From assembly GCF_003576645.1 (NCBI RefSeq), contig NC_044920.1:4164692-4228691 (forward strand): DNA of 64,000 bases, written 5' to 3'. The DNA is from Ipomoea triloba (lineage: Eukaryota; Streptophyta; Magnoliopsida; Solanales; Convolvulaceae). The notes beneath the pieces are model-generated. The model was given only the letters and a program-made list of their open reading frames with translations. It made no database searches and was not told where the DNA came from. The position numbers and the translations under genes were made by a program. Below, piece by piece: positions 20,234 to 43,880 of the stretch (the stretch's first letter is position 1; every line of letters starts with the position of its first letter).

Positions 20234-20566
20234 AGGCGCTGATTAATCGCCGCCTTGACACCTTAGGATCTATACGCCTCCCGATCGCCTGATTAGCTCC
20301 TAGCGATTTTTTCAACAATGCTTGTAATATATGAATTTTAAAGGATCAAATTGCATTATTTTACTCTCTCAAGTGTTGTATGTGTATTGTTTCTGTTCAC
20401 TTAAAAACATATAATTATATGACAAATAATACAAATTCCTACAATGTCTTATAACTCCAAATGATTTTGGTTATGTTAAATAAAATAGTAATGTGTTTAA
20501 ATGATTTTTCTAATAATACTAAACGTACTTGAAAGGACTAAAATTCACAATTCAAAAAAGAAGGTA

Positions 20567-20640
20567 GCTTTTGTAGCTCAGTTGGTTAGAGCACCCGTTT
20601 AGTAAGCGGGAGATCTTGAGTTCAACTCTCAACAAGAGCA
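20567..20640 (+). tRNA. tRNA-Thr (anticodon AGU), array copy 1
   Basis: The 74-nt cloverleaf has acceptor GCTTTTG pairing with CAAGAGC (one G-T pair), a D arm with A box TAGCTCAGTTGG, and anticodon stem CCCGT/GCGGG with loop TTAGTAA. The T arm TTGAG/CTCAA carries B box GTTCAACTC. Discriminator is A. The AGU anticodon (inosine after modification) reads ACU-type Thr codons. It is nuclear in type, since plastid Thr tRNAs use GGU or UGU. No TTTT terminator lies close downstream. Confidence 0.9.
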
Positions 20641-21610
20641 ACTCGTAATCATAAATATAAGACTTGTTTGTTAAATCTAAATTGTATAATTTGCATAATA
20701 ATTCGTTGAATTATAAAAAATTTAATAGTTATTGTTTCAAATAATTATTAATAGTGTGCGAGGTCGGATATTATCCATGGAGCACACAACATCCTCTATA
20801 ACAATTCATCTTTGTTATTCAAACACACTTGTGAAACTCTTTTGATTTTGTTTTGTGATCCAATCTCGGTATTTTACACTAGTTACATCCTCGAATTTAT
20901 CATAGTATGAGATAGTCTAGTTCGATAACTTGTAGTCCCTAAAATAAAAATCCGTAGTGTTTTAAAAATTCATCATTTATTAAGAAAGTAGGTGTTACGA
21001 ATGTACCTCTTAATCATCATCCAAAGAGACTATTGCCTTCATGTCAAAAAATTGTAAATTCAATATGGGCAAAATAGTCATTTAGAATAACGAGATAGCC
21101 ACCTCAATATATATTTTAAAAAGTACACTTGTAATCAGTGTAGCAAAGATCTCGCCTAAACGTCGGCTGACGGCTTAGCGTATCACCATAGCTGGTGGTA
21201 TAAGCGGTCGGCCAGCTAGGCGACCGACAAGGCGTCATAATTGTTGATCGCATAATCTTCCTTGGCACCGACTAGGTCCCCTAGGCACCGATTAGGCCAC
21301 CTAGTCGACTGATGAGTTAGTGTTTTTTTAAACGAATAATTTCACTCAATGAAATCATTTTGAGCGAAATAACCCAAAATTGTTCAAACTCTAGATGTTT
21401 TTTTTGTTAATATTTAATGTTTTAGTATTATATATTTCAGTATTAAATAGTTTATAAATATCAAGTCTTAAAAATAAACAAATGTTTTAACCAAATATTT
21501 TTTAATAAAGGACACGGGCTCCTAGGCGCTGATTAATCGCCGCCTTGACACCTTAGGATCTATGCGCCTCCCGGTCGCCTGATGAGCTCCTAGCGATTTT
21601 TTCAACAATG

Positions 21611-21960
21611 CTTGTAATATCTGATGAGCTCCTAGCGATTTTTTCAACAATGCTTGTAATATATGAATTTTAAAGGATCAAATTGCATTATTTTACTCTA
21701 ATATATGAATTTTAAAGGATCAAATTGCATTATTTTACTCTCTCGAGTGTTGTATGTGTATTGTTTCTTTTCACGTAAAAACATATAATTATATGAAAAA
21801 TAATACAAATTCCTACAATGTCTTATAACTCCAAATAATTTTGGCTATGTTAAATAAAAGAGTCTTATAACTCCAAATAATTTTGGCTATGTTAAATAAA
21901 AGAGTAATGTGTTTCCAAATAATTTTGGCTATGTTAAATAAAAGAGTAATGTGTTTAAAT
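21611..21960. repeat. Staggered partial duplications in array unit 1
   Basis: Segments of about 40-80 bp are copied immediately after themselves in an overlapping way: GATGAGCTCCTAGCG... twice, AATATATGAATTTTAAAGG twice, CCAAATAATTTTGGC three times. They lengthen the unit from 1279 to 1458 bp. They could be true slippage or unmerged read ends. Confidence 0.85.
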
Positions 21961-22024
21961 GATTTTTCTAATAATACTAAACGTACTTGAAAGGACTAAA
22001 ATTCACAATTTAAAAAAGAAGGTA

Positions 22025-22098
22025 GCTCTTGTAGCTCAGTTGGTTAGGGCACCCGTTTAGTAAGCGGGAGGTCTTGAGTTCAACTCTCAATAAGAGCA
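22025..22098 (+). tRNA. tRNA-Thr (anticodon AGU), array copy 2
   Basis: Full cloverleaf. Compared with the common copy, the D stem has GGGC for GAGC and the T-side acceptor strand is TAAGAGC, each giving one G-T pair. Boxes A and B are intact. The copia insertion lies about 380 bp downstream. Confidence 0.88.
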
Positions 22099-22229
22099 AC
22101 TCGTAATCATAAATATAAGACTTGTTTGTTAAATCCAAATTGTATAATTTGCATAATAATTCGTTGAATTATAAAAAATTTAATAGTTATTGTTTCAAAT
22201 AATTATTAATAGTGTGCGAGGTCGGATAT

Positions 22230-22525
22230 TATCCATGGAGCACACAACATCCTCTATATTAGGACTCTCTGAGTTTGAGTCCTAATGAGTTTGAGTCACG
22301 TTAGGACTAATATCCATGGAGCACACAACATCCCCTATATTAGGACTCTCTCTCTGAGTTTGAGTCACGTTAGGACTAATATCCATGGAGCACACAACAT
22401 CCTCTATATTAGGACTCTCTCTCTGAGTGAGTTTGAGTCACGTTAGGACTAATATCCATGGAGCACACAACATCCTCTATATTAGGACTCTCTGAGTTTG
22501 AGTCACGTTAGGACTAGCTATCCTA
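22230..22525. repeat. Fourfold repeat of host flank plus copia LTR start
   Basis: The block ATCCATGGAGCACACAACAT plus CCTCTA, followed by TATTAGGACTCTCTGAG... to GTTAGGACT, occurs four times at about 70-75-bp spacing with small CTCT length changes. Each unit therefore joins array DNA to the first ~40 bp of the copia LTR. Only the last unit continues into the element. Confidence 0.88.
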
Positions 22526-25500
22526 GGTTTATTTACGGCTCTGTTAATTCTTCCGAACGGACCGTTTCTGATGCAGCTATTTCTTCTGCGGTTTCTTCAG
22601 CAGCCGCTTCTCTGTCTGCTGCGCATCACTATGTTAGCATTAAGCTAACGAACAAGAATTTCTTGTTTTGGAGGACGCAGGTTATTCCGTTTCTTCGTGG
22701 GCACGACCTCATGGGTTTCGTTGATGGCACGAACTCTTGCCCTAATCGTTTTCTTCCCGTTTCTGAAGGCTCCTCCGCTGTTGCTGCTCTACCCAACCCG
22801 CTGCATGCTTCATGGGTGCGCCAAGATCAGGCGGTCCTTAGCATGTTAATCTCTTCACTTTCGTCGGAAGTTATGTACCTCGCAATTGGTTGCACTACGT
22901 CGCGTGATCTCTGGTTGGCGCTTGAGCAGGCTCTCGCTTCTTCTAGTCAAGCTCGGATTATGCATATTCTTGGACAGCTGCAAACAATACGCCAAGGTGA
23001 TGCCTCCGCCGTCGACTACATTGCTCGTGCGCAAGTTATGGTGGAAGATCTAGCTCTTGCTGGCCGTGCGGTTCCTTTGGAGGATCAGAATATGTATATT
23101 TTCAGAGGTTTACGTTCAGAATATCACTCTGTCGTAGCCTCTTGAGGTCAGCCGGTGCGTCTTCCCAAACTCGCCGATCTCCTTGGCTCGCATGAGTTCG
23201 CTACCGGTGATAGTTATGGCAGTGTTCCAGCCCCTGCAGTTGCGGCTTTTGTTGGCCAGCGTGGTAGTGGAGGTCGTTCGCGGTCTTGGCGTGGCGGATC
23301 GAATCGCCGCGGTGGGAATCAGTCACGTGGCGGTGCTGTTTTCACCGACCAGCAGCAGCAGCAGGGCGGTGGTGTGCAGCGTGGACGTGGCTCGCATGGC
23401 GGTGGCAGGTCACGTGGGCGACGTGGTGGTAATTGGCAGCCTCAATGCCAATTATGTGGCAATTATGGCCATCTTGCACCAGCCTGTTTTTCTTTAATTG
23501 GTCGTGGACTCCAAGCTCATTTAACATATGCTGAGGATGAGCCGAATCTTATGTCTGACACGCATCTTTGGATTCCAGACACTGGGGCGACAAATCACGC
23601 GACCCCTGATATTGCTGCGCTCTCTATATTTGAAGAGTACACTGGTGGTGATGCTCTTCGAGTTGGTGATGGTATAGGTTTGCTTATTAGTCATACTGGT
23701 CATGCTTCTTTTTCTACCCCGTCTAAAGTATTTAGGATGTCTGATATTTTACATGTTCCTGGTTTGTCTTCCTCTATTTTATCTGTGCAACGCTTTGCAA
23801 AAGATAATAAAGTCTTTTTTGAGTTTCATCCATCCTTTTTTGTTGTGAAGGATATAGCAACCAAGGCAATTCTTCTTCGCGGCAATAGTTGCGGTGGTCT
23901 CTACACGCTGCCCATTCCGAAAAACAGTCCCCGTGCGTTTATCTCGTCCCGTGCTTCCTCTTCCGTATGGCATGATCGTTTGGGACATCCTCATCAACGA
24001 GTCTTAGATCGTATTCTTCCTTTTTGTTCTGTTAGTGGTTCTAGTCGCAATAATCGTTGTACTTCTTCTTTGTGTTCTGCGTGTCAATTGGGCAAGTCTG
24101 CTCGTTTCCCTTTGCCACATGTAGACTCTGTTAGTTCGAATATTCTTGATTTGATTTATACTGATATTTGGGGACCAGCTCCTGTTTTGTCTTCTTCTGG
24201 TTATCGTTATTTTGTTCTTTTTGTTGATGACCATTCTCGTTACACGTGGTATTATCCTATGAAATTGAAGTCTGACTTGTATGCCATTTTTGACAAGTTT
24301 CGTGCCTTAGTTGAACGGTCATTTAATCGCAAAATTAAGGCTATTCAGTCTGACTTAGGAGCTGAATACAAAAAGTTACATACTGTTCTTCTTCAGTTAG
24401 GGATTAATCATAGACAATCCTGTGCCTACACTCATGAACAGAATGGTCGTGTTGAGAGGAAGCACAGGCATATTGTCGAAACTGGTCTTACTCTTATGGC
24501 TCGTGCGTCTGTTCCATCTCGTTTTTGGGACTTTGCTTTTGAAACTGCTGTTTACTTGATTAATAGAATGCCATCTAGTGTTTTGCAGAAGTCCAGTCCT
24601 CATTTATTGTTACATAAATCTTCTCCCTCATACTCTTTTCTTCGTGTGTTTGGTTGTCTTTGTTATCCTCACTTGCGTCCTTATAATCGTCACAAAATGT
24701 CGTATCGGTCATCTCCTTGTGTCTTCTTAGGTTATCCTGAGTCTTTTAGGGGGTACAGATGCATGGACTTAACGACTAATAAGATTTATATCTGCAGACA
24801 TGTATACTTTGACGAGAATGTGTTTCCCTTTGTTAGTAGGGTTGCTGTGCCATCTCCTCCCTCTGTGCAGAAGCCGTGGGCTGAATCCGTTTTACAGGTA
24901 TTACCATCTTCTCTTGCTGATTCTGCTCAGGCTGCTTCTCCTGTCACCACCACTGCTGCTCCTACTCGTCAAAGAGGACGACCCCGTGGCAAGTCCACAC
25001 GTCCGACTGTTCGCTCCCATGCAATGGCTACGAGGAGTCGGTCTGTGGCTCCACTTTTGGCTCTCTCTGCTCAGGCCTGTCCTACCGAGCCCACTTGCTA
25101 CACTCAGGCAGTTAAATTTTCTGAATGGCGAGAGGCAATGGATCTGGAGTTCAATGCACTTTTGCACAATCAGACTTGGGTTCTAGTTCCTCCTCGCCCA
25201 AGTATGAATGTGATTGGGTGTAAGTGGGTTTTTCGTACTAAACGTAAAGCTGATGGTTCAATAGAGAGGCATAAGGCGAGACTTGTGGCGAAAGGGTTTA
25301 ATCAAGGTCCTGGTCAGGACTTTTTTGACACCTTTAGTCCGGTTGTGAAACCCACTACAGTCAGATTGCTTTTGAGTTTGGCTATTTCCTCAGGTTGGGT
25401 GGTTAGGCAGCTTGACGTACACAATGCATTTTTGAATGGTGATTTGGCTGAGACTGTTTATATGCGTCAACCACCCGGGTATGCTGATGCTCAATTGCCT

Positions 25501-26618
25501 GATCACGTTTGTCTGTTGAGGCGTTCCTTATATGGCTTAAAGCAAGCTCCACGAGCTTGGTTTAATCGGCTGCATACTTTTTTACTCTCTGTTGGGTTTA
25601 TAGCTTCAAAGACTGATGTGTCATTATTCTATTACTCTCGTGGTTCTGCATGTGTGTATCTTTTAGTATATGTTGATGACATTTTGGTAATGGGGACTGA
25701 TGAGCTACTAGTGTCTGATTTACTCTCTAAACTGTCTAATGCTTTCAAAATTAGAGATCTTGGTGAACCTGGTTTCTTTCTTGGAATTGAGCTAGTCAAA
25801 ACTAGCAATGGTGTTATTCTTTCTCAGCAGCGGTACATGTCAGACATCTTGAAACGGGCTGGAATGACTGATTGTAAACCTCTCGCCACTCCTATTTCTA
25901 CATCGAAAACTCCATTGCTTAATTCAGATTCATATGAAGATCCAACGAAATACAGGAGTTTGGCTGGTGCTCTCCAGTATCTCACAATTACACGGCCAGA
26001 CTTATCCTTTGCGGTCAATCAATTGTGTCAATATATGCATGCTCCAACATTGTCTCACTGGAGCAGCTAAAACGAGTGCTCAGGTATGTCAAAGGCACAC
26101 TCTCATTCGGCTTGCGTGTAACTCAGTCAAATTCTAGAGAGCTTCATGCTTTCTCTGATTCTGACTGGGCTGGTTGTCCTGAGGACCGTAAATCTACTAG
26201 TGGGTATGCAGTGTTTCTTGGCACCAATCTTATCTCTTGGGTGTGCAAGAAACAGAAGACAGTTGCAAGATCATCCACGGAAGCTGAGTATAAAGCCTTG
26301 GCTGATGTTTGTGCTGAGGTCATATGGATCATGTCCTTGCTGCGTGAGATCAAAATTGATGGCATCCTTACTCCCAAATTATGGTGTGATAATCTTGGTG
26401 CAACTTATATGTGTGCGAATCCAATTTTTCATGCAAGAACTAAGCACGTGGAGATTGACTACCACTTTGTTAGAGATAGGGTTGCCAATGGAGATATTCA
26501 GGTTAACTTTATTTCCACAAAAGATCAATTAGCTGATATCTTTACAAAAGCTTTGCCTAGTCCTAGATTTTCTTTTCTTAGGGACAAGCTTCAGGTTAGT
26601 AGTTTACCTTGCGCTTGA
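22526..26618 (+). pseudogene. Copia gag-pol polyprotein, disabled
   Basis: The reading frame is open apart from two breaks: an in-frame TGA at 23143-23145 near the end of gag, and a one-base frameshift near 26060 between reverse transcriptase and RNase H. Visible domains are the gag body (22570-23142), the CCHC knuckle CQLCGNYGHLAPACF (near 23446), the protease motif DTGATNH (near 23578), and the integrase zinc part and D-D-E core (23960-24520). The reverse transcriptase has its YVDD motif at 25669-25680, and RNase H (26100-26560) has DSDWAGC and STEAEY. The gag start codon is lost with the 5' deletion. Damage is light, so insertion was fairly recent, but this copy cannot make its proteins unaided. 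Confidence 0.93.
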
Positions 26619-26625
26619 GGGGGAG

Positions 26626-26758
26626 TATTAGGACTCTCTGAGTTTGAGTCACGTTAGGACTAGCTATCCTACTCTACCTGAGACTCCCCTTGTATATATA
26701 TCTCCTATTCCTCATCATTGTAATTGTTCAATTGAATCAATACAATATTCAGTTCTCA
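26626..26758 (+). repeat. 3' LTR of the copia element
   Basis: It begins TATTAGGACTCTCTGAG right after the purine tract and ends AGTTCTCA. A TATATATA tract and a short U5-like end are visible. Its first 46 bp match 22480-22525. At 133 bp it is short for an LTR. Confidence 0.88.
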
Positions 26759-27102
26759 TCCTCTATAACAATTCATCTTTGTTATTCAAACACACTTGCG
26801 AAACTCTTTTGATTTTGTTTTGTGATCCAATCTCGGTATTTTACACTAGTTACATCCTCGAATTTATCATAGTATGAGATAGTCTAGTTCGATAACTTGT
26901 AGTCCCTAAAATAAAAATCCGTAGTGTTTTAAAAATTCATCATTTATTAAGAAAGTAGGTGTTACGAATGTACCTCTTAATCATCATCCAAAGAGACTAT
27001 TGCCTTCATGTCAAAAAATTGTAAATTCAATATGGGCAAAATAGTCATTTAGAATAACGAGATAGCCACCTCAATATATATTTTAAAAAGTACACTTGTA
27101 AT

Positions 27103-27568
27103 CAATGTTGCAAAGATCTCGCCTAAACGTCGGCTGACGGCCTAGCGTATCACCATAGCCGGTGGTATAAGCGGTTGGCCAGCTAGGCGACCGACAAGGC
27201 GTCATAATTGTTGATCGCATAATCTTCCTTGGCGCCGAATAGGTCCCCTAGGCACCGATTAGGCCACCTAGTCGACTGATGAGTTAGTGTTTTTTTAAAC
27301 GAATAATTTCACTCAATGAAATCATTTTGAGCGAAACAACCCAAAATTGTTCAAACTCTAGATGTTTTTTTGGTTAATATTTAATATTTTAGTATTATAT
27401 ATTTCAGTATTAAATAGTTTATAAATATCAAGTCTTAAAAATAAACAAATGTTTTAACCAAATATTTTTTTAATAATGGACACGGGCTCCTAGGCGCTAA
27501 TTAATCGCCGCCTTGACACCTTAGGATCAATGCGGCTCCCGGTTAACTGATGAGCTCCTAGCGATTTT
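27103..27568. mobile_element. hAT-like MITE embedded in every array unit (representative copy)
   Basis: The copy starts CAATGTTGCAAAGATCTCGC and ends ATTTTTTCAACAATG, an inverted terminal pair, and is flanked by the 8-bp direct repeat CTTGTAAT. An 8-bp duplication and CA-starting ends fit hAT. The inside is GC-rich near both ends (CTAGGC-type words) with no coding frame. Equivalent copies start at 21136, 28382, 29661, 30940, 32219, 33747, 35141, 36436, 37656, 38935, 40141 (split by a solo LTR), 42106 and 43470, plus a cut copy ending at 20320. Since all share the same target duplication, the insertion preceded amplification. Confidence 0.88.
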
Positions 27569-27824
27569 TTCAACAATGCTTGTAATATATGAATTTTAAA
27601 GGATCAAATTGCATTATTTTACTCTCTCGAGTGTTGTATGTGTATTGTTTCTTTTCACGTAAAAACATATAATTATATGACAAATAATACAAATTCCTAC
27701 AATGTCTTATAACTCCAAATAATTTTGGCTATGTTAAATAAAAGAGTAATGTGTTTAAATGATTTCTCTAATAATACTAAACGTACTTGAAAGGACTAAA
27801 ATTCACAATTCAAAAAAGAACGTA

Positions 27825-27898
27825 GCTCTTGTAGCTCAGTTGGTTAGAGCACCCGTTTAGTAAGCGGGAGGTCTTGAGTTCAAATCTCAACAAGAGCA
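27825..27898 (+). tRNA. tRNA-Thr (anticodon AGU), array copy 3
   Basis: This is the common form of the array: acceptor GCTCTTG/CAAGAGC fully paired, loop TTAGTAA, B box GTTCAAATC. It is the first copy after the copia element. Confidence 0.92.
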
Positions 27899-29103
27899 AC
27901 TCGTAATCATAGATATAAGACTTGTTTGTTAAATCCAAATTGTATAATTTGCATAATCATTCATTGAATTATAAAAAATTTAATAGTTATTGTTTCAAAT
28001 AATTATTAATAGTGTGCGAGGTCGGATATTATCCATGGAGCACTCAATATCCTCTATTTGTTATTCAAACACACTTGTGAAACTCTTTTGATTTTGTTTT
28101 GTGATCCAATCTCGGTATTTTACACTGGTTACATCCTCGAATTTATCATAGTATGAGATAGTCTAGTTCGATAACTTGTAGTCCCTAAAATAAAAATCCG
28201 TAGTGTTTTAAAAATTCATCATTTATTAAGAAAGTAGGTGTTACGAATGTACCTCTTAATCATCATCCAAAGAGACTATTGCCTTCATGGCAAAAAATTG
28301 TAAATTTAATATGGGCAAAATAGTCATTTAGAATAACGAGATAGCCACCTCAATATATATTTTAAAAAGTACACTTGTAATCAGTGTTGCAAAGATCTCG
28401 CCTAAACGTCGGCTGACGGCCTAGCGTATCACCATTGTGGTATAAGCGGTCGGCCAGCTAGGCAACCGACAAGGCGTCATAATTGTTGATCGCATGATCT
28501 TCCTTGGCGCCCGCCGACTAGGTCTCCTAGGCATCGATTAGGCCACCTAGTCGACTGATGAGCTAGTGTTTTTTTAAACGAAAAATTTCTCTCAATGAAA
28601 TCATTTTGAGCGAAATAACCCAAAATTGTTCAAACTCTAGACGTTTTTTGGGTTAATATTTAATATTTTAGTATTATATATTACAGTATTAAATAGTTTA
28701 TAAATATCAAATCTTAAAAACAAACAAATGTTTTAACCAAATATTTTTTTAATAAAGGACACGGGCTCCTAGGCACTGATTAATCGCCGCCTTGACACCT
28801 TAGGATCAATGCGCCTCCCGGTCGCCTGATTAGCTCCTAGCGATTTTTTCAATAATGCTTGTAATATATGAACTTTAAAGGATCAAATTGCATTATTTTA
28901 CTCTCTCGAGTGTTGTATGTGTATTGTTTCTTTTCACGTAAAAACATATAATTATATGACAAATAATACAAATTCCTACAATATCTTATAACTCCAAATA
29001 ATTTTGGCTATGTTAAATAAAAGAGTAATGTGTTTAAATGATTTTTCTAATAATACTAAACGTACTTGAAAGGACTAAAATTCACAATTCAAAAAAGAAC
29101 GTA

Positions 29104-29177
29104 GCTCTTGTAGCTCAGTTGGTTAGAGCACCCGTTTAGTAAGCGGGAGGTCTTGAGTTCAAATCTCAACAAGAGCA
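29104..29177 (+). tRNA. tRNA-Thr (anticodon AGU), array copy 4
   Basis: Identical to copy 3 over the tRNA, exactly 1279 bp downstream. The first run of four T residues on the plus strand after it is about 187 nt away (29364). Confidence 0.92.
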
Positions 29178-30382
29178 ACTCGTAATCATAAATATAAGAC
29201 TTGTTTGTTAAATCCAAATTGTATAATTTGCATAATCATTCGTTGAATTATAAAAAATTTAATAGTTATTGTTTCAAATAATTATTAATAGTGTGCGAGG
29301 TCGGATATTATCCATGGAGCACTCAATATCCTCTATTTGTTATTCAAACACACTTGTGAAACTCTTTTGATTTTGTTTTGTGATCCAATCTCGGTATTTT
29401 ACACTGGTTACATCCTCGAATTTATCATAGTATGAGATAGTCTAGTTGGATAACTTGTAGTCCCTAAAATAAAAATCCGTAGTGTTTTAAAAATTCATCA
29501 TTTATTAAGAAAGTAGGTGTTACGAATGTACCTCTTAATCATCATCCAAAGAGACTATTGCCTTCATGGCAAAAAATTGTAAATTTAATATGGGCAAAAT
29601 AGTCATTTAGAATAACGAGATAGCCACCTCAATATATATTTTAAAAAGTACACTTGTAATCAGTGTTGCAAAGATCTCGCCTAAACGTCGGCTGACGGCC
29701 TAGCGTATCACCATTGTGGTATAAGCGGTCGGCCAGCTAGGCAACCGACAAGGCGTCATAATTGTTGATCGCATGATCTTCCTTGGCGCCCGCCGACTAG
29801 GTCTCCTAGGCATCGATTAGGCCACCTAGTCGACTGATGAGCTAGTGTTTTTTTAAACGAAAAATTTCTCTCAATGAAATCATTTTGAGCGAAATAACCC
29901 AAAATTGTTCAAACTCTAGACGTTTTTTGGGTTAATATTTAATATTTTAGTATTATATATTACAGTATTAAATAGTTTATAAATATCAAATCTTAAAAAC
30001 AAACAAATGTTTTAACCAAATATTTTTTTAATAAAGGACACGGGCTCCTAGGCACTGATTAATCGCCGCCTTGACACCTTAGGATCAATGCGCCTCCAGG
30101 TCGCCTGATGAGCTCCTAGCGATTTTTTCAATAATGCTTGTAATATATGAACTTTAAAGGATCAAATTGCATTATTTTACTCTCTCGAGTGTTGTATGTG
30201 TATTGTTTCTTTTCACGTAAAAACATATAATTATATGACAAATAATACAAATTCCTACAATGTCTTATAACTCCAAATAATTTTGGCTATGTTAAATAAA
30301 AGAGTAATGTGTTTAAATGATTTTTCTAATAATACTAAACGTACTTGAAAGGACTAAAATTCACAATTCAAAAAAGAACGTA

Positions 30383-30456
30383 GCTCTTGTAGCTCAGTTG
30401 GTTAGAGCACCCGTTTAGTAAGCGGGAGGTCTTGAGTTCAAATCTCAACAAGAGCA
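30383..30456 (+). tRNA. tRNA-Thr (anticodon AGU), array copy 5
   Basis: Identical to copies 3 and 4, 1279 bp after copy 4. All stems are paired and both internal promoter boxes are intact. Confidence 0.92.
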
Positions 30457-31661
30457 ACTCGTAATCATAGATATAAGACTTGTTTGTTAAATCCAAATTG
30501 TATAATTTGCATAATCATTCGTTGAATTATAAAAAATTTAATAGTTATTGTTTCAAATAATTATTAATAGTGTGCGAGGTCTGAGATTATCCATGGATCA
30601 CTCAATATCCTCTATTTGTTATTCAAACACACTTGTGAAACTCTTTTGATTTTGTTTTGTGATCCAATCTCGGTATTTTACACTGGTTACATCCTCGAAT
30701 TTATCATAGTATGAGATAGTCTAGTTGGATAACTTGTAGTCCCTAAAATAAAAATCCGTAGTGTTTTAAAAATTCATCATTTATTAAGAAAGTAGGTGTT
30801 ACGAATGTACCTCTTAATCATCATCCAAAGAGACTATTGCCTTCATGGCAAAAAATTGTAAATTTAATATGGGCAAAATAGTCATTTAGAATAACGAGAT
30901 AGCCACCTCAATATATATTTTAAAAAGTACACTTGTAATCAGTGTTGCAAAGATCTCGCCTAAACGTCGGCTGACGGCCTAGCGTATCACCATTGTGGTA
31001 TAAGCGGTCGGCCAGCTAGGCAACCGACAAGGCGTCATAATTGTTGATCGCATGATCTTCCTTGGCGCCCGCCGACTAGGTCTCCTAGGCATCGATTAGG
31101 CCACCTAGTCGACTGATGAGCTAGTGTTTTTTTAAACGAAAAATTTCTCTCAATGAAATCATTTTGAGCGAAATAATCCAAAATTGTTCAAACTCTAGAT
31201 GTTTTTTGGGTTAATATTTAATATTTTAGTATTATATATTACAGTATTAAATAGTTTAAAAATATCAAATCTTAAAAACAAACAAATGTTTTAACCAAAT
31301 ATTTTTTTAATAAAGGATACGGGCTCATAGGCGCTGATTAATCGCCGCCTTGACACCTTAGGATCAATGCGCCTCCCGGTCGCCTGATTAGCTCCTAGCG
31401 ATTTTTTCAATAATGCTTGTAATATATGAACTTTAAAGGATCAAATTGCATTATTTTACTCTCTCGAGTGTTGTATGTGTATTGTTTCTTTTCACGTAAA
31501 AACATATAATTATATGACAAATAATACAAATTCCTACAATATCTTATAACTCCAAATAATTTTGGCTATGTTAAATAAAAGAGTAATGTGTTTAAATGAT
31601 TTTTCTAATAATACTAAACGTACTTGAAAGGACTAAAATTCACAATTCAAAAAAGAACGTA

Positions 31662-31735
31662 GCTCTTGTAGCTCAGTTGGTTAGAGCACCCGTTTAGGAA
31701 GCGGGAGGTCTTGAGTTCAAATCTCAACAAGAGCA
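31662..31735 (+). tRNA. tRNA-Thr-like gene with anticodon AGG (Pro-reading), array copy 6
   Basis: The body equals the neighbouring Thr genes, but the anticodon loop is TTAGGAA. Base 31698 is G where the other copies have T, turning AGU into AGG, which would read CCU/CCC proline codons. All stems remain paired. Anticodon bases are recognition elements for both the Thr and Pro synthetases, so charging is uncertain. It may be an anticodon-shifted gene, a decaying copy or a sequencing error. Confidence 0.8.
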
Positions 31736-33330: not shown

Positions 33331-34448
33331 GAATTATAAAAAATTTAATAGTTATTGTTTCAAATAATTATTAATAGTGTGCGAGGTCGGATATTATCCA
33401 TGCAGCACACAATATCCTCTATTTGTTATTCAAACACACTTGTGAAACTCTTTTGATTTTGTTTTGTGATCCAATCTCGGTATTTTACACTGGTTACATC
33501 CTCGAATTTATCATAGTATGAGATAGTCTAGTTCGATAACTTGTAGTCCCTAAAATAAAAATCCGTAGTGTTTTAAAAATTCATCATTTATTAAGAAAGT
33601 AGGTGTTACGAATGTACCTCTTAATCATCATCCAAAGAGACTATTGCCTTCATGTCAAAAAATTGTAAATTCAATATGGGCAAAATAGTCATTTAGAATA
33701 ACAAGATAGCCACCTCAATATATATTTTAAAAAGTACAGTTGTAATCAATGTTGCAAAGATCTCGCCTAAACGTCGGCTGACGGCCTAGCGTATCACCAT
33801 AGCCGGTGGTATAAGCGGTCGGCCAGCTAGGCAACCGACAAGGCGTCATAATTGTTGATCGCATAATCTTCCTTGGCGCCGACTAGGTCCCCTAGTGGAC
33901 TGATGAGTTAGTGTTTTTTTAAACGAAAAATTTCTCTCAATGAAATCATTTTGAGCGAAATAACCCAAAATTGTTCAAACTCTAGTCGTTTTTTGGGTTA
34001 ATATTTAATATTTTAGTATTATATATTACAGTATTAAATAGTTTATAAATATCAAATCTTAAAGACAAACAAATGTTTTAACCAAATATTTTTTTAATAA
34101 AGGACACGGGCTCCTAGGCACTGATTAATCGCCGCCTTGACACCTTAGGATCAATGCGCCTCCCGGTCGCCTGATGGGCTCCTAGCGATTTTTTCAATAA
34201 TGCTTGTAATATATGATCTTTAAAGGATCAAATTGCATTATTTTACTCTCTCGAGTGTTGTATGTGTATTGTTTCTTTTCACGTAAAAACATATAATTAT
34301 ATGACAAATAATACAAATTCCTACAATATCTTATAACTCCAAATAATTTTGGCTATGTTAAATAAAAGAGTAATGTGTTTAAATGATTTTTCTAATAATA
34401 CTAAACGTACTTGAAAGGACTAAAATTCACAATTCAAAAAAGAACGTA

Positions 34449-34522
34449 GCTCTTGTAGCTCAGTTGGTTAGAGTACCCGTTTAGTAAGCGGGAGGTCTTG
34501 AGTTCAAATCTCAACAAGAGCA
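34449..34522 (+). tRNA. tRNA-Thr (anticodon AGU), array copy 8
   Basis: Like the common copy except that the D stem ends GAGT rather than GAGC, making one G-T pair. Anticodon loop and B box are unchanged. Confidence 0.88.
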
Positions 34523-35011
34523 ACTCATAATCATAAATATATGACTTATTTGTTAAATCCAAATTGTATAATTTGCATAATCATTCGTTGAATTATAAAA
34601 AATTTAATAGTTATTGTTTCAAATAATTATTAATAGTGTGCGAGGTCGGATATTATCCATGGAGCACACAATATCCTCTATTTGTTATTCAAACACACTT
34701 GTGAAACTCTTTTGATTTTGTTTTGTGATCCAATCTCGGTATTTTACACTAGTTACATCCTCGAATTTATCATAGTATGAGATAGTCTAGTTCGATAACT
34801 TGTAGTCCCTAAAATAAAAATCCGTAGTGTTTTAAAAATTCATCATTTATTAAGAAAGTAGGTGTTACGAATGTACCTCTTAATCATCATCCAAAGAGAC
34901 TATTGCCTTCATGTCAAAAAATTGTAAATTTAATATGGGCAAAATAGTCATTTAGAATAACGAGATAGACACCTCAATATATATTTTAAAAAGTACACTT
35001 GTAATCAGTGT

Positions 35012-35150
35012 NAATTGTAAATTTAATATGGGCAAAATAGTCATTTAGAATAACGAGATAGCCACCTCAATATATATTTTAAAAAGTACACTTGTAATCA
35101 GTGTCACCTCAATATATATTTTAAAAAGTACACTTGTAATCAGTGTTGCA
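35012..35150. repeat. Partial duplication beginning at a single N
   Basis: At N35012 the spacer restarts from AATTGTAAATTTAATATGG and repeats about 85 bp. It then restarts again from CACCTCAATATATA. The N marks an uncertain join, so this duplication may not exist in the genome. Confidence 0.85.
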
Positions 35151-35866
35151 AAAATCTCGCTTAAACGTCGGCTGACGGCCTAGCGTATCACCATAGCCGG
35201 TGGTATAAACGGTCGGCCAGCTAGGCAACCGACAAGGCGTCATAGTTGTTGATCGCATAATCTTCCTTGGCGCCCGCCGACTAGGTCTCCTAGGCACCGA
35301 TTAGGCCACCTAGTCGACTGATGAGCTAGTGTTTTTTTAAACGAAAAATTTCTCTCAATGAAATCATTTTGAGCGAAATAATCCAAAATTGTTCAAACTC
35401 TAGATGTTTTTTGGGTTAATATTTAATATTTTAGTATTATATATTACAGTATTAAATAGTTTAAAAATATCAAATCTTAAAAACAAACAAATGTTTTAAC
35501 CAAATATTTTTTTAATAAAGGATACGGGCTCATAGGCGCTGATTAATCGCCGCCTTGACACCTTAGGATCAATGCGCCTCCCGGTCGCCTGATTAGCTCC
35601 TAGCGATTTTTTCAATAATGCTTGTAATATATGAACTTTAAAGGATCAAATTGCATTATTTTACTCTCTCGAGTGTTGTATGTGTATTGTTTCTTTTCAC
35701 GTAAAAACATATAATTATATGACAAATAATACAAATTCCTACAATATCTTATAACTCCAAATAATTTTGGCTATGTTAAATAAAAGAGTAATGTGTTTAA
35801 ATGATTTTTCTAATAATACTAAACGTACTTGAAAGGACTAAAATTCACAATTCAAAAAAGAATGTA

Positions 35867-35940
35867 GCTCTTGTAGCTCAGTTGGTTAGAGCACCCGTTT
35901 AGTAAGCGGGAGGTCTTGAGTTCAAATCTCAACAAGAGCA
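35867..35940 (+). tRNA. tRNA-Thr (anticodon AGU), array copy 9
   Basis: Identical to the common array tRNA. The unit upstream contains the single N at 35012 and a partial spacer duplication. Confidence 0.92.
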
Positions 35941-37150
35941 ACTCGTAATCATAAATATAAGACTTGTTTGTTAAATCCAAATTCTATAATTTGCATAATC
36001 ATTCGTTGAATTATAAAAAATTTAATAGTTATTGTTTCAAATAATTATTAATAGTGTGCGAGGTCGGATATTATCCATGGAGCACACAATATCCTCTATA
36101 GCAATTCATTTTTGTTATTCAAACACACTTGTGAAACTCTTTTGATTCCGTTTTGTGATCCAATCTCGGTATTTTACACTGGTTACATCCTCGAATTTAT
36201 CATAGTATGAGATAGTCTAGTTGGATAACTTGTAGTCCCTAAAATAAAAATCCGTAGTGTTTTAAAAATTCATCATTTATTAAGAAAGTAGGTGTTACGA
36301 ATGTACCTCTTAATCATCATCCAAAGAGACTATTGCCTTCATGGCAAAAAATTGTAAATTTAATATGGGCAAAATAGTCATTTAGAATAACGAAATAGCC
36401 ACCTCAATATATATTTTAAAAAGTACACTTGTAATCAGTGTTGCAAAGATCTCGCCTAAACGTCGGCTGACGGCCTAGCGTATCACCATTGTGGTATAAG
36501 CGGTCGGCCAGCTAGGCAACCGACAAGGCGTCATAATTGTTGATCGCATGATCTTCCTTGGCGCCCGCCGACTAGGTCTCCTAGGCACCGATTAGGCCAC
36601 CTAGTCGACTGATGAGCTAGTGTTTTTTTAAACGAATAATTTCACTCAATGAAATCATTTTGAGCGAAATAACCCAAAATTGTTCAAAGTCTAGATGTTT
36701 TTTTGGGTTAATATTTAATATTTTAGTATTATATATTACAGTATTAAATAGTTTATAAGTATAAAAATAAACAAATGTTTTAACTAAATATTTTTTTAAC
36801 AAAGGACATGGGCTCCTAGGCGCTGATTAATCGCCGCCTTGACACATTAGGATCTATGCGCCAATCGGTCGCCTGATGAGCTCCTAACGATTTTTTCCGC
36901 AATGCTTGTAATATATGAATTTTAAAGGATCAAATTGCATTATTTTAGTCTCTCAAGTGTTGTATGTGTATTGTTTCTGTTCATGTAAAAACATATAATT
37001 ATTTGACAAATAATACAAATTCCTACAATGTCTTATAACTCCAAATAATTTTGGTTATGTTAAATAAAAGAGTAATGTGTTTAAATGATTTTTCTAATAA
37101 TACTAAACGTACTTGAAAGGACTAAAATTCACAATTCAAAAAAGAAGGTA

Positions 37151-37199
37151 GCTCTTGTAGCTCAGTTGGTTAGAGCACCCGTTTAGTAAGTGGGAGGTC
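37151..37199 (+). pseudogene. Truncated tRNA-Thr, array copy 10
   Basis: The 5' half is intact through loop TTAGTAA, although the anticodon stem has GTGGG for GCGGG. The T arm and 3' acceptor strand are deleted: after GGAGGTCA the sequence jumps to spacer. Without a B box it cannot be a normal Pol III gene. Confidence 0.92.
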
Positions 37200-38377
37200 A
37201 GAAATTCAAATTGCATATTAATTAGTTGAATTATAAAAAAATTTAATAGTTATTATTTCAATTAATTATTAATAGTGTGCGAGGTCAGATATTATCCATG
37301 GTGCACACAATATCCTCTATAACAATACATATTTGTTATTCAAACACACTTGTGAAACTCTTTTGATTTTGTTTTGTGATCCAATCTCGGTATTTACACT
37401 AGTTACATCCTCGAATTTATCATAGTATGAGATAGTCTAGTTCGATAACTTGTAGTCCCTAAAATAAAAATCCGTAGTGTTTTAAAAATTCATCATTTAT
37501 TAAGAAAGTAGGTGTGACGAATGTACCTCTTATTCATCATCCAAAGAGACTATTGCCTTCATGTCAAAAAATTGTAAATTTAATATGGGCAAAATAGTCA
37601 TTTAGAATAACGAAATAGCCACCTCAATATATATTTTAAAAAGTACACTTGTAATCAGTGTTGCAAAGATCTCGCCTAAACGTCGGCTGACGGCCTAGCG
37701 TATCACCATTGTGGTATAAGCGGTCGGCCAGCTAGGCAACCGACAAGGCGTCATAATTGTTGATCGCATGATCTTCCTTGGCGCCCGCCGACTAGGTCTC
37801 CTAGGCATCGATTAGGCCACCTAGTCGACTGATGAGCTAGTGTTTTTTTAAACGAAAAATTTCTCTCAATGAAATCATTTTGAGCGAAATAACCCAAAAT
37901 TGTTCAAACTCTAGACGTTTTTTGGGTTAATATTTAATATTTTAGTATTATATATTACAGTATTAAATAGTTTATAAATATCAAATCTTAAAAACAAACA
38001 AATGTTTTAACCAAATATTTTTTTAATAAAGGACACGGGCTCCTAGGCACTGATTAATCGCCGCCTTGACACCTTAGGATCAATGCGCCTCCAGGTCGCC
38101 TGATGAGCTCCTAGCGATTTTTTCAATAATGCTTGTAATATATGAACTTTAAAGGATCAAATTGCATTATTTTACTCTCTCGAGTGTTGTATGTGTATTG
38201 TTTCTTTTCACGTAAAAACATATAATTATATGACAAATAATACAAATTCCTACAATATCTTATAACTCCAAATAATTTTGGCTATGTTAAATAAAAGAGT
38301 AATGTGTTTAAATGATTTTTCTAATAATACTAAACGTACTTGAAAGGACTAAAATTCACAATTCAAAAAAGAACGTA

Positions 38378-38451
38378 GCTCTTGTAGCTCAGTTGGTTAG
38401 AGCACCCGTTTAGTAAGCGGGAGGTCTTGAGTTCAAATCTCAACAAGAGCA
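38378..38451 (+). tRNA. tRNA-Thr (anticodon AGU), array copy 11
   Basis: Identical to the common array tRNA, lying between two deleted copies. Both promoter boxes are intact. Confidence 0.92.
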
Positions 38452-39656
38452 ACTCGTAATCATAAATATAAGACTTATTTGTTAAATCCAAATTGTATAA
38501 TTTGCATAATCATTCGTTGAATTATAAAAAATTTAATAGTTATTGTTTCAAATAATTATTAATAGTGTGCGAGGTCGGATATTATCCATGGAGCACACAA
38601 TATCCTCTATTTGTTATTCAAACACACTTGTGAAACTCTTTTGATTTTGTTTTGTGATCCAATCTCGGTATTTTACACTAGTTACATCCTCGAATTTATC
38701 ATAGTATGAGATAGTCTAGTTCGATAACTTGTAGTCCCTAAAATAAAAATCCGTAGTGTTTTAAAAATTCATCATTTATTAAGAAAGTAGGTGTGACGAA
38801 TGTACCTCTTATTCATCATCCAAAGAGACTATTGCCTTCATGTCAAAAAATTGTAAATTTAATATGGGCAAAATAGTCATTTAGAATAACGAGATAGCCA
38901 CCTCAATATATATTTTAAAAAGTACACTTGTAATCAGTGTTGCAAGGATCTCGCCTAAACGTCGGCTGACGGCCTAGCGTATCACCATAGCCGGTGGTAT
39001 AAGCGGTCGGCCAGCTAGGCAACCGACAAGGCGTCATAATTGTTGATCGCATAATCTTCCTTGGCGCCGACTAGGTCTCCTAGGCACCGATTAGGCCACC
39101 TAGTCGACTGATGAGTTAGTGTTTTTTTAAACGAATAATTTCACTCAATGAAATCATTTTGAGCGAAATAACCCAAAATTGTACAAACTCTAGATGTTTT
39201 TTGGGTTAATATTTAATATTTTAGTATTATATATTTCAGTATTAAATAGTTTATAAATATCAAGTCTTAAAAATAAACAAATGTTTTAATCAAATATTTT
39301 TTTAATAAAGGACACGGGCTCCTAGGCGCTGATTAATCGCCGCCTTGACACCTTAGGATCTATGCGCCTCCCGGTCACCTGATGAGCTCCTAGCGATTTT
39401 TTCAACAATGCTTGTAATATATGAATTTTAAAGGATCAAATTGCATTATTTTACTCTCTCAAGTGTTGTATGTGTATTGTTTCTGTTCACGTAAAAACAT
39501 ATAATTATATGACAAATAATACAAATTCCTACAATGTCTTATAACTCCAAATAATTTTGGTTATGTTAAATAAAAGAGTAATGTGTTTAAATGATTTTTC
39601 TAATAATACTAAACGTACTTGAAAGGACTAAAATTCACAATTCAAAAAAGAACGTA

Positions 39657-39666
39657 GCTCTTGTAG
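39657..39666 (+). pseudogene. Remnant of tRNA-Thr, array copy 12
   Basis: Only GCTCTTGTAG remains before the sequence jumps to the 3' spacer (TCATAAATATAAG). The rest of the tRNA is deleted. The spacing from copy 11 is still the standard 1279 bp. Confidence 0.9.
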
Positions 39667-40203
39667 TCATAAATATAAGACTTGTTTGTTAAATCCAAAT
39701 TGTATAATTTGCATAATCATTCGTTGAATTATAAAAAATTTAATAGTTATTGTTTCAAATAATTATTAATAGTGTGCGAGGTCGGATATTATCCATGGAG
39801 CACACAATATCCTCTATTTGTTATTCAAACACACTTGTGAAACTCTTTTGATTTTGTTTTGTGATCCAATCTCGGTATTTTACACTAGTTACATCCTCGA
39901 ATTTATCATAGTATGAGATAGTCCAGTTCGATAACCTGTAGTCCCTAAAATAAAAATCCGTAGTGTTTTAAAAATTCATCATTTATTAAGAAAGTGGTGT
40001 TACGAATGTACCTCTTAATCATCATCCAAAGAGACTATTGCCTTCATGTCAAAAAATTGTAAATTTAATATGGGCAAAATAGTCATTTAGAATAACAAGA
40101 TAGCCAACTCAATATATATTTTAAAAAGTACACTTGTAATCAGTGTTGCAAAAATCTCGCCTAAACGTCGGCTGACGGCCTAGCGTATCACCATAACCGG
40201 TGG

Positions 40204-41774
40204 TGTTGGTTTTATCAACCACGGGTGGTCGTACGGCAGGCCAACACAACCGAAAAATCGACTTAACACTTGATCAGAAAACTAGAGTGACTTTTCAGCC
40301 GTCTTTTGTATTACGAATTGCCTTTTAGTACAATATATTGCTTATTCCTCTCTCAAGGCTTGGAACCTCTATTTATACATGCTAGGAGGGATCTTTCCCT
40401 TTGGAAACTCTAAGTTACCATATTTAAGTTTAGAAACTCTTTCCCTATTATATTTAGACACTTACCTATTCTATCTCGACCTTACTTCCCTATCTTCGCC
40501 TTTTGCCTCCTGACTCCTTTAGGAAACTCCCATAACCGCCTTTCTCACACCTCTCTTTCTCACACCTCCTTATTTCCCTCAGCCTCGGCTTTTAGGTCGG
40601 TCCAAGCCGACTCATCCCTTTTGATCCATCTTTCCTTCCATGGTAATTAACTGTTTCAATAGCACTTGTTCAATCACTCTGAGTCTAAGATCTTCAGCTG
40701 CCTTGTCACAAACCTTCGGCCGGCCGACTCATCATCGACCGGTCCACGCCGCATCATCGCACCTTCCTCTGAGTCTTTCAAGCTCATCAGTTTCTCTTCT
40801 TGTCACATTTCATTGGTCGTCCTTACTACTTTTTCCGAACTATTAGTACCGAGCTTTAATCCTTCCCCTATCATGTAGTCCCTCAGTTTTCCAAGTCACG
40901 TAGAGCACGACTTGGGGAACTATCTTATTTTCGCCAACTACCTTACAGTCTGCTTCTTACCCCTATCCAACCGATCGTTCCTCTATCCTTCTAACTCGAC
41001 CCTTCCTTTGTCTTCCAGTTTAAAAGATTTTTTTACTCCCCCCCCCACCCACCCAGGTTCCTCACTTTCCTTTGTTACGCGAAGCACGACATAGAAAAGT
41101 ACAGTGCTGCAATCCGTAGTGAGCTTAACACCATTCACCATACTTTGTGTTGACTCTTTTACTCCCCTATTTCAAGGAAGAGTGAAGGGATTCTTTTGCC
41201 AACTCCTTTTTCAAGGAAATATAAAAGGCTTTTATGGTTGAGTCTTTTTTCAAGGACGAGTGAAAGGCTTTTTATGGCCGAGTCCTTTTTCAAGGACGAG
41301 TGAAAGGCTTTTTATAGCCGAGTCCTTTTTCAAAGACGAGTGAAAGACTTTTCATAGCTGAGTCCTTATTAGTGAAAGACTTTTTATAGCCGAGTCCTTA
41401 TTAGTGAAAGGTTTTTTATAGCCGAGTCCTTTTTCGAGGACAAGTGAAAGGCTTTTTATAGCTTACTCCTTTTTCAAGATAATATTAGTCAGCCGTCGCG
41501 CGTCAGAGGGATGACTCATCCCTTTTGATCCATCTTTCCTTCCATGGTAATTAACTATTTCAATAGCACTTGTTCAATTACTCTAAGTCTAAGATCTTCA
41601 GCTGCCTTGTCACAAACCTTTGCCCGGCCGACTCATCATCGACCGACCCACGCCGCATCATCGCACCTTCCTCCGAGTCTTTAAAGCTCGGTTTCTCTTA
41701 TTGCCGCATTTCATTGGTCGTCCTTACTACTTATTCCGAACTATTAGTACCGACCCTTAATCTTTCCCCCATCA
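40204..41774 (-). mobile_element. Solo LTR inside an array MITE
   Basis: It starts TGTTGGTTTTATCAACC and ends CCCCCATCA, flanked by the 5-bp duplication GGTGG at 40199-40203 and 41775-41779. On the minus strand a TATAAATAG box (40369-40377) lies about 165 bp from the 3' end, as in a U3-R-U5 layout. There is no internal domain, so this is a solo LTR of about 1.57 kb left by LTR-LTR recombination. It splits the MITE that starts at 40141. Confidence 0.82.
40609..41774. repeat. Internal duplications of the solo LTR
   Basis: Bases 40609-40873 recur at 41513-41774 with about 10 percent differences (both start GACTCATCCCTTTTGATCC). Between them, 41158-41480 holds 40-bp tandem repeats with the wording AGTCCTTTTTCAAGGACGAG. 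Small open frames here are repeat-derived. Confidence 0.85.
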
Positions 41775-42851
41775 GGTGGTCTAAGCGGTCTACTAACTAG
41801 GCGACCGACAAGGCTGCCAATGCGCCACCTAGGCGTCATAGGAGCTGATCGCATAGGCTTCCTTGATGCCGACTAGGCCTCCTAGGCACTGACTAGGCCA
41901 CCTAATCGAGATGATCTAGTTTTTTTTTAAATGAATTATTTCACTCAATGAAATCATTTTGCGCGAAATAACCAAAAATTGTTCAAACTCTAGATGTTTT
42001 TTAGGTTAATATTTAATATTTTAGTATTATATTTTAAAGTATTAGATAGTTTATAATTATCAAGTCTTAAAAATAATAAAATATTTTAAAAAGTACACTT
42101 GTAATCAGTGTTGCAAAAATCACGCCTAGCCACCGACTGACCGCCTAGCATATCACCATAATCGATGGTCTAGGCAGCCAACAAAGCTGTCTAAGCCTAC
42201 TAAGCTCTGATCGCCTAGTCCTCCTAGGCTCCATCTAGGCCTCCTAGGCGCCGACTAGGCCGCATAGTCAATTGATTAGCTAGTGTTCTCTTTTCTTTTT
42301 TTTTTTTAAACGCATTGTCTTACTCAATGACATCATTTTTCGCGAAATAATCTAAAAATTTTCAAACTCTAGATGTTTTTTTAAGTAAATAATTAATATT
42401 TTAGTATTGTCTATTAAAGTATTAAATAGTTTATAATTATCAAGTGTTACAAATTTTAAACAAATTTTTTAAAAGTAAAAAAATAAAATAAAAAAAATAC
42501 CCAGGCTCCTAGGCACCGATTAATCGCAACCTAGTCTCCTTAGGCGTTATGCGCCCCACGGGCGCCCGATGAGCGCTTAGCGATTTTTTCAACCATGCTT
42601 GTAATGTATGATTTCTAAAGGATCAAACTATATTATGTTACTATCTCAAAAGCTGTATGATGTGCTTTGTTTTTGGTCGTGTAAAAACATAGAAGTATAT
42701 GTTATCATATATGAGAAAAAATACAAATTGCCTACTATATGTTATAACTCATAATAATTTTGGTTATGTTAAATAAAAAGAGTAATGTGTTTAAATGATT
42801 TTTCTAATAATACTACACTTGAAATGACTAAAATTCACAAATTAAAAGCTA

Positions 42852-42925
42852 GCTCTGGTAGCTCAGTTGGTTACAACACTAGTTTAGTAAGCAGAAGGTC
42901 TTGAGTTTAATTGTCAACAAGAGCA
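42852..42925 (+). pseudogene. Diverged tRNA-Thr, array copy 13
   Basis: Length is 74 nt and loop TTAGTAA is kept, but the D stem reads CAAC for GAGC, the anticodon stem is CTAGT/GCAGA with mismatches, and the B box is GTTTAATTG. It lies in the old right part of the array and is probably inactive. Confidence 0.82.
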
Positions 42926-43880
42926 ACTGGTAAATATAATTTGAAAGTTCCATTTAAATAGTATAATTTATGTTTCGTTAAATTTTAAAAATTATTCTAA
43001 AAAAAACTTAAAAATTATTATATATTTTAAATAATTAATAGTGTGTTCTAGGTTGGGTTCGTATCTAACTAACTTGTGTCGGTCTTATGTTCTGCAAATA
43101 TTGATATTGTTATCCATGGAGCACACAATATCCTTTATAACAATACATCTTTATTATTCTTAAAGTTGTGAAGGTCTTTTGATTTTGTTTGTGATCCAAT
43201 CTCTATATTATATTTTAGATTAGCTCTCGAATTTATCTTAGTATGAGATAATCTAGTTCGGTAACTTGTAGCCCCTAAAATAACACTCTGTAGTGTTTTG
43301 AAAATTCATTTATTAAGAAAGTAGGTGTTACAAATATACCCATTAATCATCATCCAAAGAGGCTATTGCCTTCATGTATAAAAAAGTGTCATTTTAATAT
43401 GGCCAAAATAGTCATTTAGAATACTAAGATAGCCCCCTCAAAAGATATTTTAAAAATTACACTTGTAATCAGTGTTGCAAAAATCCCGCATAGACGCAAA
43501 TTACAAGGTGCCGACTGGCCTCCAGCATATCACCATAATCGGTAGTGTAGGCGGCCAACAAGGCCCCCTAAGCACCACCTAGGCCTCCTAGGCACCGTTT
43601 ATGCCGCCTAGTCAATTGATTAGCTAGTGTTCATTTCTTTCTTTTTTCTTTTTAAATGAATTATTTCACTCAATGACATCGTTTTGAGTAAAATAATTCA
43701 AAATTGTTCAAGCTCTAAATGTTTTTTTTAGGTTAATATTTAATATTTTAGTATTATCTATTAAGTATTAAATAATTTATAATTATAAAGTCTTAAAAAT
43801 ATTAACAAAATTTAAACAAATTTTTAAAAAAATACACGGGCACCTCGTCGCCGATTAATCATCGCCTAGCCATACTTAGC

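What the first reader, a model, noticed from the sequence alone, without database searches (positions are those of the whole stretch)
20234..43880. Satellite-like tandem array of tRNA-Thr(AGU) genes
Thirteen tRNA-Thr sites, ten of them full length, recur in one orientation with an exact 1279-bp period in the best-preserved parts. Tandem tRNA clusters are known in plants (for example the Pro and Tyr-Tyr-Ser clusters of Arabidopsis). I do not know of a described Thr array with a unit this long that also carries a MITE. The array could be a dosage reservoir for tRNA-Thr, a passive satellite that captured a tRNA, or an insulator-like Pol III locus. Which of these holds is inference; the repeat structure is seen directly.
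Basis: partly seen in the sequence, partly recalled or inferred. Interest (0 to 1): 0.88.

Follow-up and report, generated by a model that had tools for sequence, protein, structure and literature searches.

The report
Passive tRNA-Thr satellite array in Ipomoea
A stretch of what is likely a sweet-potato-group (Ipomoea) genome holds ten near-intact threonine-type tRNA genes in head-to-tail units of about 1.28 kb, probably a passive satellite that carries a tRNA gene along, and its copy number is uncertain because eleven exact 42-bp duplications inside it are likely unmerged assembly joins.

Summary
The array is real in the sequence: 13 tRNA-Thr-derived sites on the + strand between 20234 and 43882, ten full length, spacing exactly 1279 bp in 4 of 11 intervals. 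Three corrections. (1) Much of the length irregularity is likely an assembly artefact: eleven exact 42-bp tandem duplications lie inside the array and none in 40 kb of flank, and 7 of 11 sit at k-mer branch points between units against 1.2 expected. That fits unmerged overlaps of a short-read graph assembly. A single N at 35012 separates contig ends sharing 92 bp. Unit number and order are not established. (2) The tRNA genes look like passengers: they diverge as fast as the spacer (10/740 vs 203/12022), none has a T4 run within 168 nt downstream, one has anticodon AGG and one has lost A37. (3) No terminal inverted repeats of a MITE were found; the clear mobile elements are a Copia element and a 1.57-kb LTR-like insert. 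A flanking gene is 99% identical to an Ipomoea batatas protein. Tandem plant tDNA arrays are known; this is a new member.

The parts
20234..43882 (+). whole tandem array, 13 tRNA-derived sites
   Evidence: self-BLAST, unit consensus against window
20567..20640 (+). tRNA-Thr(AGU), 3 differences from the commonest copy
22025..22098 (+). tRNA-Thr(AGU), 3 differences; Copia element begins 159 bp downstream
27825..27898 (+). tRNA-Thr(AGU), commonest sequence
29104..29177 (+). tRNA-Thr(AGU), commonest sequence
30383..30456 (+). tRNA-Thr(AGU), commonest sequence
31662..31735 (+). tRNA-Thr body with anticodon AGG (called tRNA-Pro), one base from the commonest copy
33022..33095 (+). tRNA-Thr(AGU) with the base after the anticodon changed from A to G and one anticodon-stem change
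34449..34522 (+). tRNA-Thr(AGU), 1 difference
35867..35940 (+). tRNA-Thr(AGU), commonest sequence
37151..37211 (+). tRNA-Thr remnant, 3' part deleted
38378..38451 (+). tRNA-Thr(AGU), commonest sequence
39657..39666 (+). first 10 nt of tRNA only, rest deleted
42852..42925 (+). diverged tRNA-Thr copy (64/74) in an old edge unit; not called by ARAGORN or Rfam
22257..26758 (+). Copia LTR retrotransposon inserted in unit 2, direct repeat TCCTCTA at both ends (exact boundary ambiguous by a few bases), 5' end rearranged into a 69-73 bp repeat
   Evidence: Pfam RVT_2, gag, pre-integrase; ends
40204..41774 (.). 1571-bp LTR-like insertion, TG...CA ends, 5-bp direct repeat GGTGG
21579..21956 (.). four exact 42-bp tandem duplications (starts 21579, 21657, 21820, 21872): likely unmerged contig overlaps
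32711..33347 (.). six exact 42-bp tandem duplications (starts 32711, 32754, 33104, 33152, 33203, 33264): likely unmerged contig overlaps
34920..35146 (.). assembly gap (single N at 35012) between 92-bp overlapping contig ends (91/92), and the eleventh 42-bp duplication starting at 35063

Best explanation
This is a long-unit tandem repeat with a tRNA-Thr gene inside each roughly 1.28-kb unit, and it likely spread as a passive satellite by unequal exchange rather than by selection for more tRNA. Shown: ten near-intact tRNA genes in one orientation, units 95.7-99.5% alike, no T4 run within 168 nt after any of the ten, older decayed units at the right edge, two LTR-type insertions. Inferred: expansion by unequal crossing-over or gene conversion; the A and B boxes (intact by eye) may still recruit TFIIIC, but transcripts would run on past the missing close terminator, so the copies are likely poor or silent tRNA sources. 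Also inferred: eleven 42-bp duplications and one N-joined overlap are leftovers of a short-read assembly, so the true number and order of units is open.
For: tRNA and spacer differ from the unit consensus at about equal rates, 10/740 and 203/12022 (ten units; the truncated 37151 unit, the partial 39657 unit and the left-edge fragment were left out of this count). In the old edge unit the tRNA is not significantly better kept: 10/74 against 317/1587, Fisher P 0.23. The first T4 starts 169-356 nt downstream in nine genes (the 356 includes four of the 42-bp duplications) and is absent within 400 nt, mostly Copia sequence, in the tenth; the tRNA-His gene at 10894 in the same window has T5 at +4 and CAA at -5. 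Anticodon AGG at 31662 and G after the anticodon at 33022. Two sites have lost part of the tRNA (37151, 39657). Joins: of twelve primary exact tandem duplications in the main array, eleven have lag 42 and the twelfth is the 93-bp-lag N join; no lag-42 run in either flank (20,233 and 20,118 bases), in Copia or in the old edge stretch. Smallest piece between neighbouring joins is 43 bp. 7 of 11 joins lie at branch points against 1.23 of 11 expected; 0 of 20000 random draws reached 7.
Against: Five of ten genes are identical, which active genes would also show. In the old edge unit the tRNA does differ less than the spacer (13.5% against 20%), though not significantly. T4 absence is weak evidence by itself: in first-order resampled spacer a distance this long arises in 15% of 5000 trials, all copies share one ancestor, and PMC11700998 reports T4 within 50 nt for only 72.77% of dicot tDNAs. 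Similarity does not fall significantly with distance between units (Mantel P 0.22), so local unequal exchange is not shown. Four of eleven 42-bp joins are not at a branch point visible in this window, and the random draws did not imitate the clustering of the joins in three stretches. No published assembly setting giving a 42-bp overlap was found.
Confidence: 0.68

Rival explanations
1. A conditionally used tRNA-Thr reservoir, silent in most tissues and switched on where demand is high, as described for the Arabidopsis Ser-Tyr-Tyr cluster.
For: Five identical copies with Rfam 71.2 bits; precedent in PMC12308677 (abstract and passages), where the mostly silenced cluster is expressed in root tips and transgenic copies outside the array are active in roots.
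Against: No close T4 and no CAA within 10 nt upstream in any of ten genes; no significant excess conservation of the tRNA; one of ten has a Pro anticodon.
Confidence: 0.14
2. The long array is largely an assembly product: a few real units, or units from several haplotypes of a polyploid, were strung together.
For: Eleven 42-bp joins and one N join within the array, none of the 42-bp kind in the flanks; if the source is hexaploid sweet potato, the review PMC6797701 notes misassemblies reported in its first assembly (passages).
Against: Units carry 0-18 private differences each, the exact 1279-bp steps from 27825 to 31662 contain no 42-bp join, and old diverged units and two insertions with flanking repeats fit a real aged array.
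Confidence: 0.14
3. The 42-bp duplications are real, made by a local process that copies a fixed length of about four helical turns.
For: Exact lag of 42 eleven times at different places in the unit.
Against: Seen only inside near-identical repeats, 7 of 11 at branch points, only 0-3 matching bases beyond 42, and one beside an N join.
Confidence: 0.03

Closest known systems
Arabidopsis SYY (tRNA-Ser/Tyr/Tyr) and tRNA-Pro tandem clusters (PMC12308677, PMC11700998, PMC10701932; passages)
   Same: tandem tDNA units in a plant nuclear genome; SYY has intact copies in a core and pseudogenes at its edges; unit length is comparable (SYY: 27 units in almost 40 kbp, so about 1.5 kb)
   Different: here tRNA-Thr, a single tDNA per 1.28-kb unit, no close T4, two LTR-type insertions; silencing not tested here
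Arabidopsis tRNA-Cys cluster, chromosome 5 (PMC10701932; abstract and passages)
   Same: repeating units with one tDNA each, a pseudogene at the edge, transposable-element annotation in the cluster
   Different: 0.4-kb units with Pol III termination signals reported present, four to six copies
Human 1q23.3 tRNA variable-number tandem repeat (PMC4041453; abstract)
   Same: tRNA genes inside a large satellite-like unit repeated many times (9-43)
   Different: 7.3-kb GC-rich unit bound by CTCF; here about 1.28 kb and 33% GC
Maize 28-copy tRNA-Ile cluster (PMC11700998; passages)
   Same: many copies of one isotype in tandem
   Different: found by a rule of three tDNAs per kb, which this array would fail

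Membership tests
Plant tandem tDNA array | three or more tDNAs of related sequence, same strand, in repeated units | tested here: met
   ten full-length copies, units 95.7-99.5% alike
Plant tandem tDNA array | within the survey distance rule (three per kb, or neighbours under 1 kb); a search rule rather than a biological feature | tested here: not met
   smallest start-to-start step 1227 bp, so more than 1.1 kb between tRNA sites; rules from PMC11700998 and PMC12652284
Plant tandem tDNA array | epigenetic silencing as in Arabidopsis | not testable with these tools
   no methylation or expression data
Active plant nuclear tRNA gene | cloverleaf and A and B boxes | tested here: met
   Rfam RF00005 61.4-71.2 bits for 10 of 10; boxes read by eye against recalled consensus
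Active plant nuclear tRNA gene | T4 or longer close downstream | tested here: not met
   none within 168 nt in 10 of 10; 72.77% of dicot tDNAs have one within 50 nt
Active plant nuclear tRNA gene | CAA within 10 nt upstream | tested here: not met
   0 of 10; CAA lies at -14 and/or -19; only about 45% of dicot tDNAs have it
MITE inside the unit | terminal inverted repeats | tested here: not met
   best arm alignment between unit positions 521-800 and 801-1130 scores 20, shuffled mean 19.2, max 28 of 200; no long distant arm pair in the consensus or in 28250-29000; strongly decayed ends are not excluded
De Bruijn unmerged-overlap artefact | exact duplications of one fixed length, at repeat branch points | tested here: met
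   eleven of length 42; 7 of 11 at branch points, control mean 1.23

The most novel reading that the evidence does not exclude
Plant genomes hold a class of long-unit tRNA satellites that current surveys miss because they require spacing under 1 kb; in this one the tDNA, lacking a close terminator, would drive a Pol III transcript of about 262 nt (tRNA plus a 188-nt spacer tail) instead of a plain tRNA, and one member would put a proline anticodon on a threonine tRNA body.
Probability: 0.15. Interest if true: 0.6.

Novelty: new member of a known kind. Interest (0 to 1): 0.35.

Why it matters
It extends tandem tDNA arrays to tRNA-Thr in what is likely Ipomoea, and shows that the 1-kb spacing rules of the two published plant surveys I read in part would overlook such an array. 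It also gives a simple sequence test (exact duplications of one fixed length at repeat branch points) for spotting unmerged short-read joins before copy number or unit variants are interpreted.

Tried and rejected
tRNA-snoRNA dicistron or other RNA in the spacer: Rfam at E up to 5 on 26757-30500 gave only tRNA above gathering score; the other matches (a plastid ycf2 5'UTR model on the minus strand of the tRNA, RNA-OUT, CLRN1-AS1) were far below theirs. MITE in the unit: no inverted termini. Selection on the tRNA body: not visible or not significant. Local unequal exchange shown by nearer units being more alike: not significant. T4-free downstream stretch as a selected feature: 15% by chance. 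A published Ipomoea assembly setting that would give the 42-bp overlap: PMC6444543, PMC4401327 and PMC6797701 (passages only) name Platanus, SOAPdenovo2 and other programs but I saw no such value; which assembly this window comes from is unknown. PMC5368935 (passages) uses odd SOAPdenovo2 -K values that equal the overlap length, so an even 42 does not fit such a setting; that SOAPdenovo2 takes only odd values is recalled. This counts against SOAPdenovo2, not against other graph assemblers. Paper searches for false duplications and k-1 overlaps were seen as listings, and only PMC5368935 was opened. The first branch-point test (3 of 11, P 0.11) used join starts one base too high; one search repeats it with verified starts and replaces it. 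Positions printed, used and written in the first notebook entry are also one base too high; interval lengths are unaffected. A described tRNA-Thr array with such a unit was looked for (listings, plus passages of PMC11700998, PMC12652284, PMC10701932 and PMC12308677 and the abstract of PMC4041453) and not seen; supplementary tables of the surveys could not be read, so an unlisted one may be in print.
Full report
What is there. ARAGORN and Rfam each report eleven tRNA genes in the window: one tRNA-His(GUG) at 10894 and ten array genes between 20567 and 38451, all on the + strand. Nine of the ten read AGU; the one at 31662 reads AGG. BLAST with the commonest copy adds a 61-nt remnant at 37151, a diverged copy at 42852 and a 10-nt match at 39657, and reading the sequence around 39657 shows a tRNA start followed by a deletion. 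Self-comparison puts the array at 20234-43882.

Unit structure. Unit spacing is exactly 1279 bp in four of eleven intervals as assembled. When duplicated joins are removed it lies between 1227 and 1300 in all eleven (Copia excluded from one). Pairwise substitution identity among the eleven units U01-U11 is 95.7-99.5%. The right edge, 42081-43882, is an older stretch at about 70-75% identity in BLAST. One unit is split by a Copia retrotransposon at 22257-26758, and the last good one by a 1571-bp insertion with TG...CA ends and a GGTGG direct repeat.

The 42-bp duplications. A scan for exact tandem repeats of at least 18 bp at lags 8-299 gave, in the main array, eleven runs at lag 42 with lengths 42-45. 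The other lags there were 84 and 126, multiples of 42, and 93 and 135, which come from the N join at 35012. Neither flank (20,233 and 20,118 bases), nor Copia, nor the right-hand old stretch had any lag-42 run. They lie at different places in the unit, so they were not inherited from one duplicated ancestor. The shortest piece between neighbouring joins is 43 bp. Seven of eleven 42-mers have different neighbours in other units, against 1.23 of 11 for random array positions; 0 of 20000 draws reached seven. The draws were independent and did not imitate the clustering of the joins. This is what concatenated, unmerged contigs of a k-mer graph give, because such contigs share k-1 bases and break where repeats diverge (graph definition: PMC5368935, passages). 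The N at 35012 lies between contig ends sharing 92 bp with one mismatch. I infer that this part was pieced together from short reads, that the units starting at 20567, 31662, 33022 and 34449 are longer than they should be, and that the number and order of units cannot be trusted. I could not identify the assembler, and the even overlap length does not fit the odd SOAPdenovo2 settings used in that paper.

Are the genes working? Internal A and B boxes look intact by eye (consensus recalled). The upstream 60 nt are A/T-rich. No array gene has T4 within 168 nt downstream, and none has CAA within 10 nt upstream, whereas the tRNA-His gene in the same window has both features. PMC11700998 (section 3.2) reports T4 within 50 nt in 72.77% and CAA within 10 nt in about 45% of dicot tDNAs, so each lack alone is not rare, and the ten genes are one ancestry, not ten tests. 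The tRNA changes about as fast as the spacer: 10/740 against 203/12022 (ten units). In the old edge unit the tRNA has 10/74 differences against 317/1587 in the spacer, which is lower but not significantly so (P 0.23). One copy has a proline anticodon on a threonine body and one has G in place of the A after the anticodon. The need of threonyl- and prolyl-tRNA synthetases for anticodon bases 35 and 36, and of the t6A modification for A37, is recalled knowledge; on that basis both variants are likely impaired.

Source. The second reading frame (49519-50646) of the GH17-X8 gene is 99% identical to an Ipomoea batatas protein over its full length; other close named hits are a second Ipomoea batatas protein (83%) and Cuscuta europaea (83% over 93%), with an Acer protein (73%) ranking second by score (best 120 of 3458 listed). 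The window is likely from Ipomoea batatas or a close relative. The genome-wide search did not complete in six attempts.

Comparison with what is known. Tandem tDNA arrays in plants are known: Arabidopsis tRNA-Pro, Tyr-Tyr-Ser and Cys clusters, and 28 tRNA-Ile in maize (PMC11700998, PMC10701932, PMC12308677; passages). The Ser-Tyr-Tyr cluster has 27 units in almost 40 kbp, so about 1.5 kb each; a unit of 1.28 kb is not unusually long, and what differs is one tDNA per unit. That cluster is silenced in most tissues and expressed in root tips. PMC12652284 finds tandem tRNA genes in many of 50 plants and reports that about 77% of similar neighbours keep their anticodon (passages), so an anticodon change is not unheard of. 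A tRNA satellite with a much longer unit is known in human at 1q23.3 (abstract). Both plant surveys demand neighbours under 1 kb apart or three genes per kb, which this array fails. I therefore rate it a new member of a known kind, most likely a passive satellite, with a copy number that awaits long reads.

Noticed in passing
10894-10965: Dispersed tRNA-His(GUG) gene with T5 at +4 and CAA at -5, used as an in-window control for an ordinary plant tDNA.
   Followed up: yes
48829-50649: GH17 plus X8 beta-1,3-glucanase gene in two reading frames; the second is 99% identical to an Ipomoea batatas protein. A 139-bp tandem duplication (49296-49578) spans the gap between the frames.
   Followed up: partly
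22257-22516: 5' end of the Copia element is rearranged into a 69-73 bp tandem repeat that mixes array sequence and LTR sequence.
   Followed up: partly
40204-41774: LTR-like insertion with two direct repeats of about 270 bp near its middle and right end (40609-40880 and 41513-41781, 91.5%) and a 40-bp tandem repeat (41166-41478) between them.
   Followed up: partly
7760-8207 and 7052-7202: Tandem duplications of 225 bp (94%) and 76 bp (97%) outside the array, not of the 42-bp kind.
   Followed up: no
9634-10259: 626-bp run of N, an assembly gap flanked by G-rich and CA-repeat sequence.
   Followed up: no
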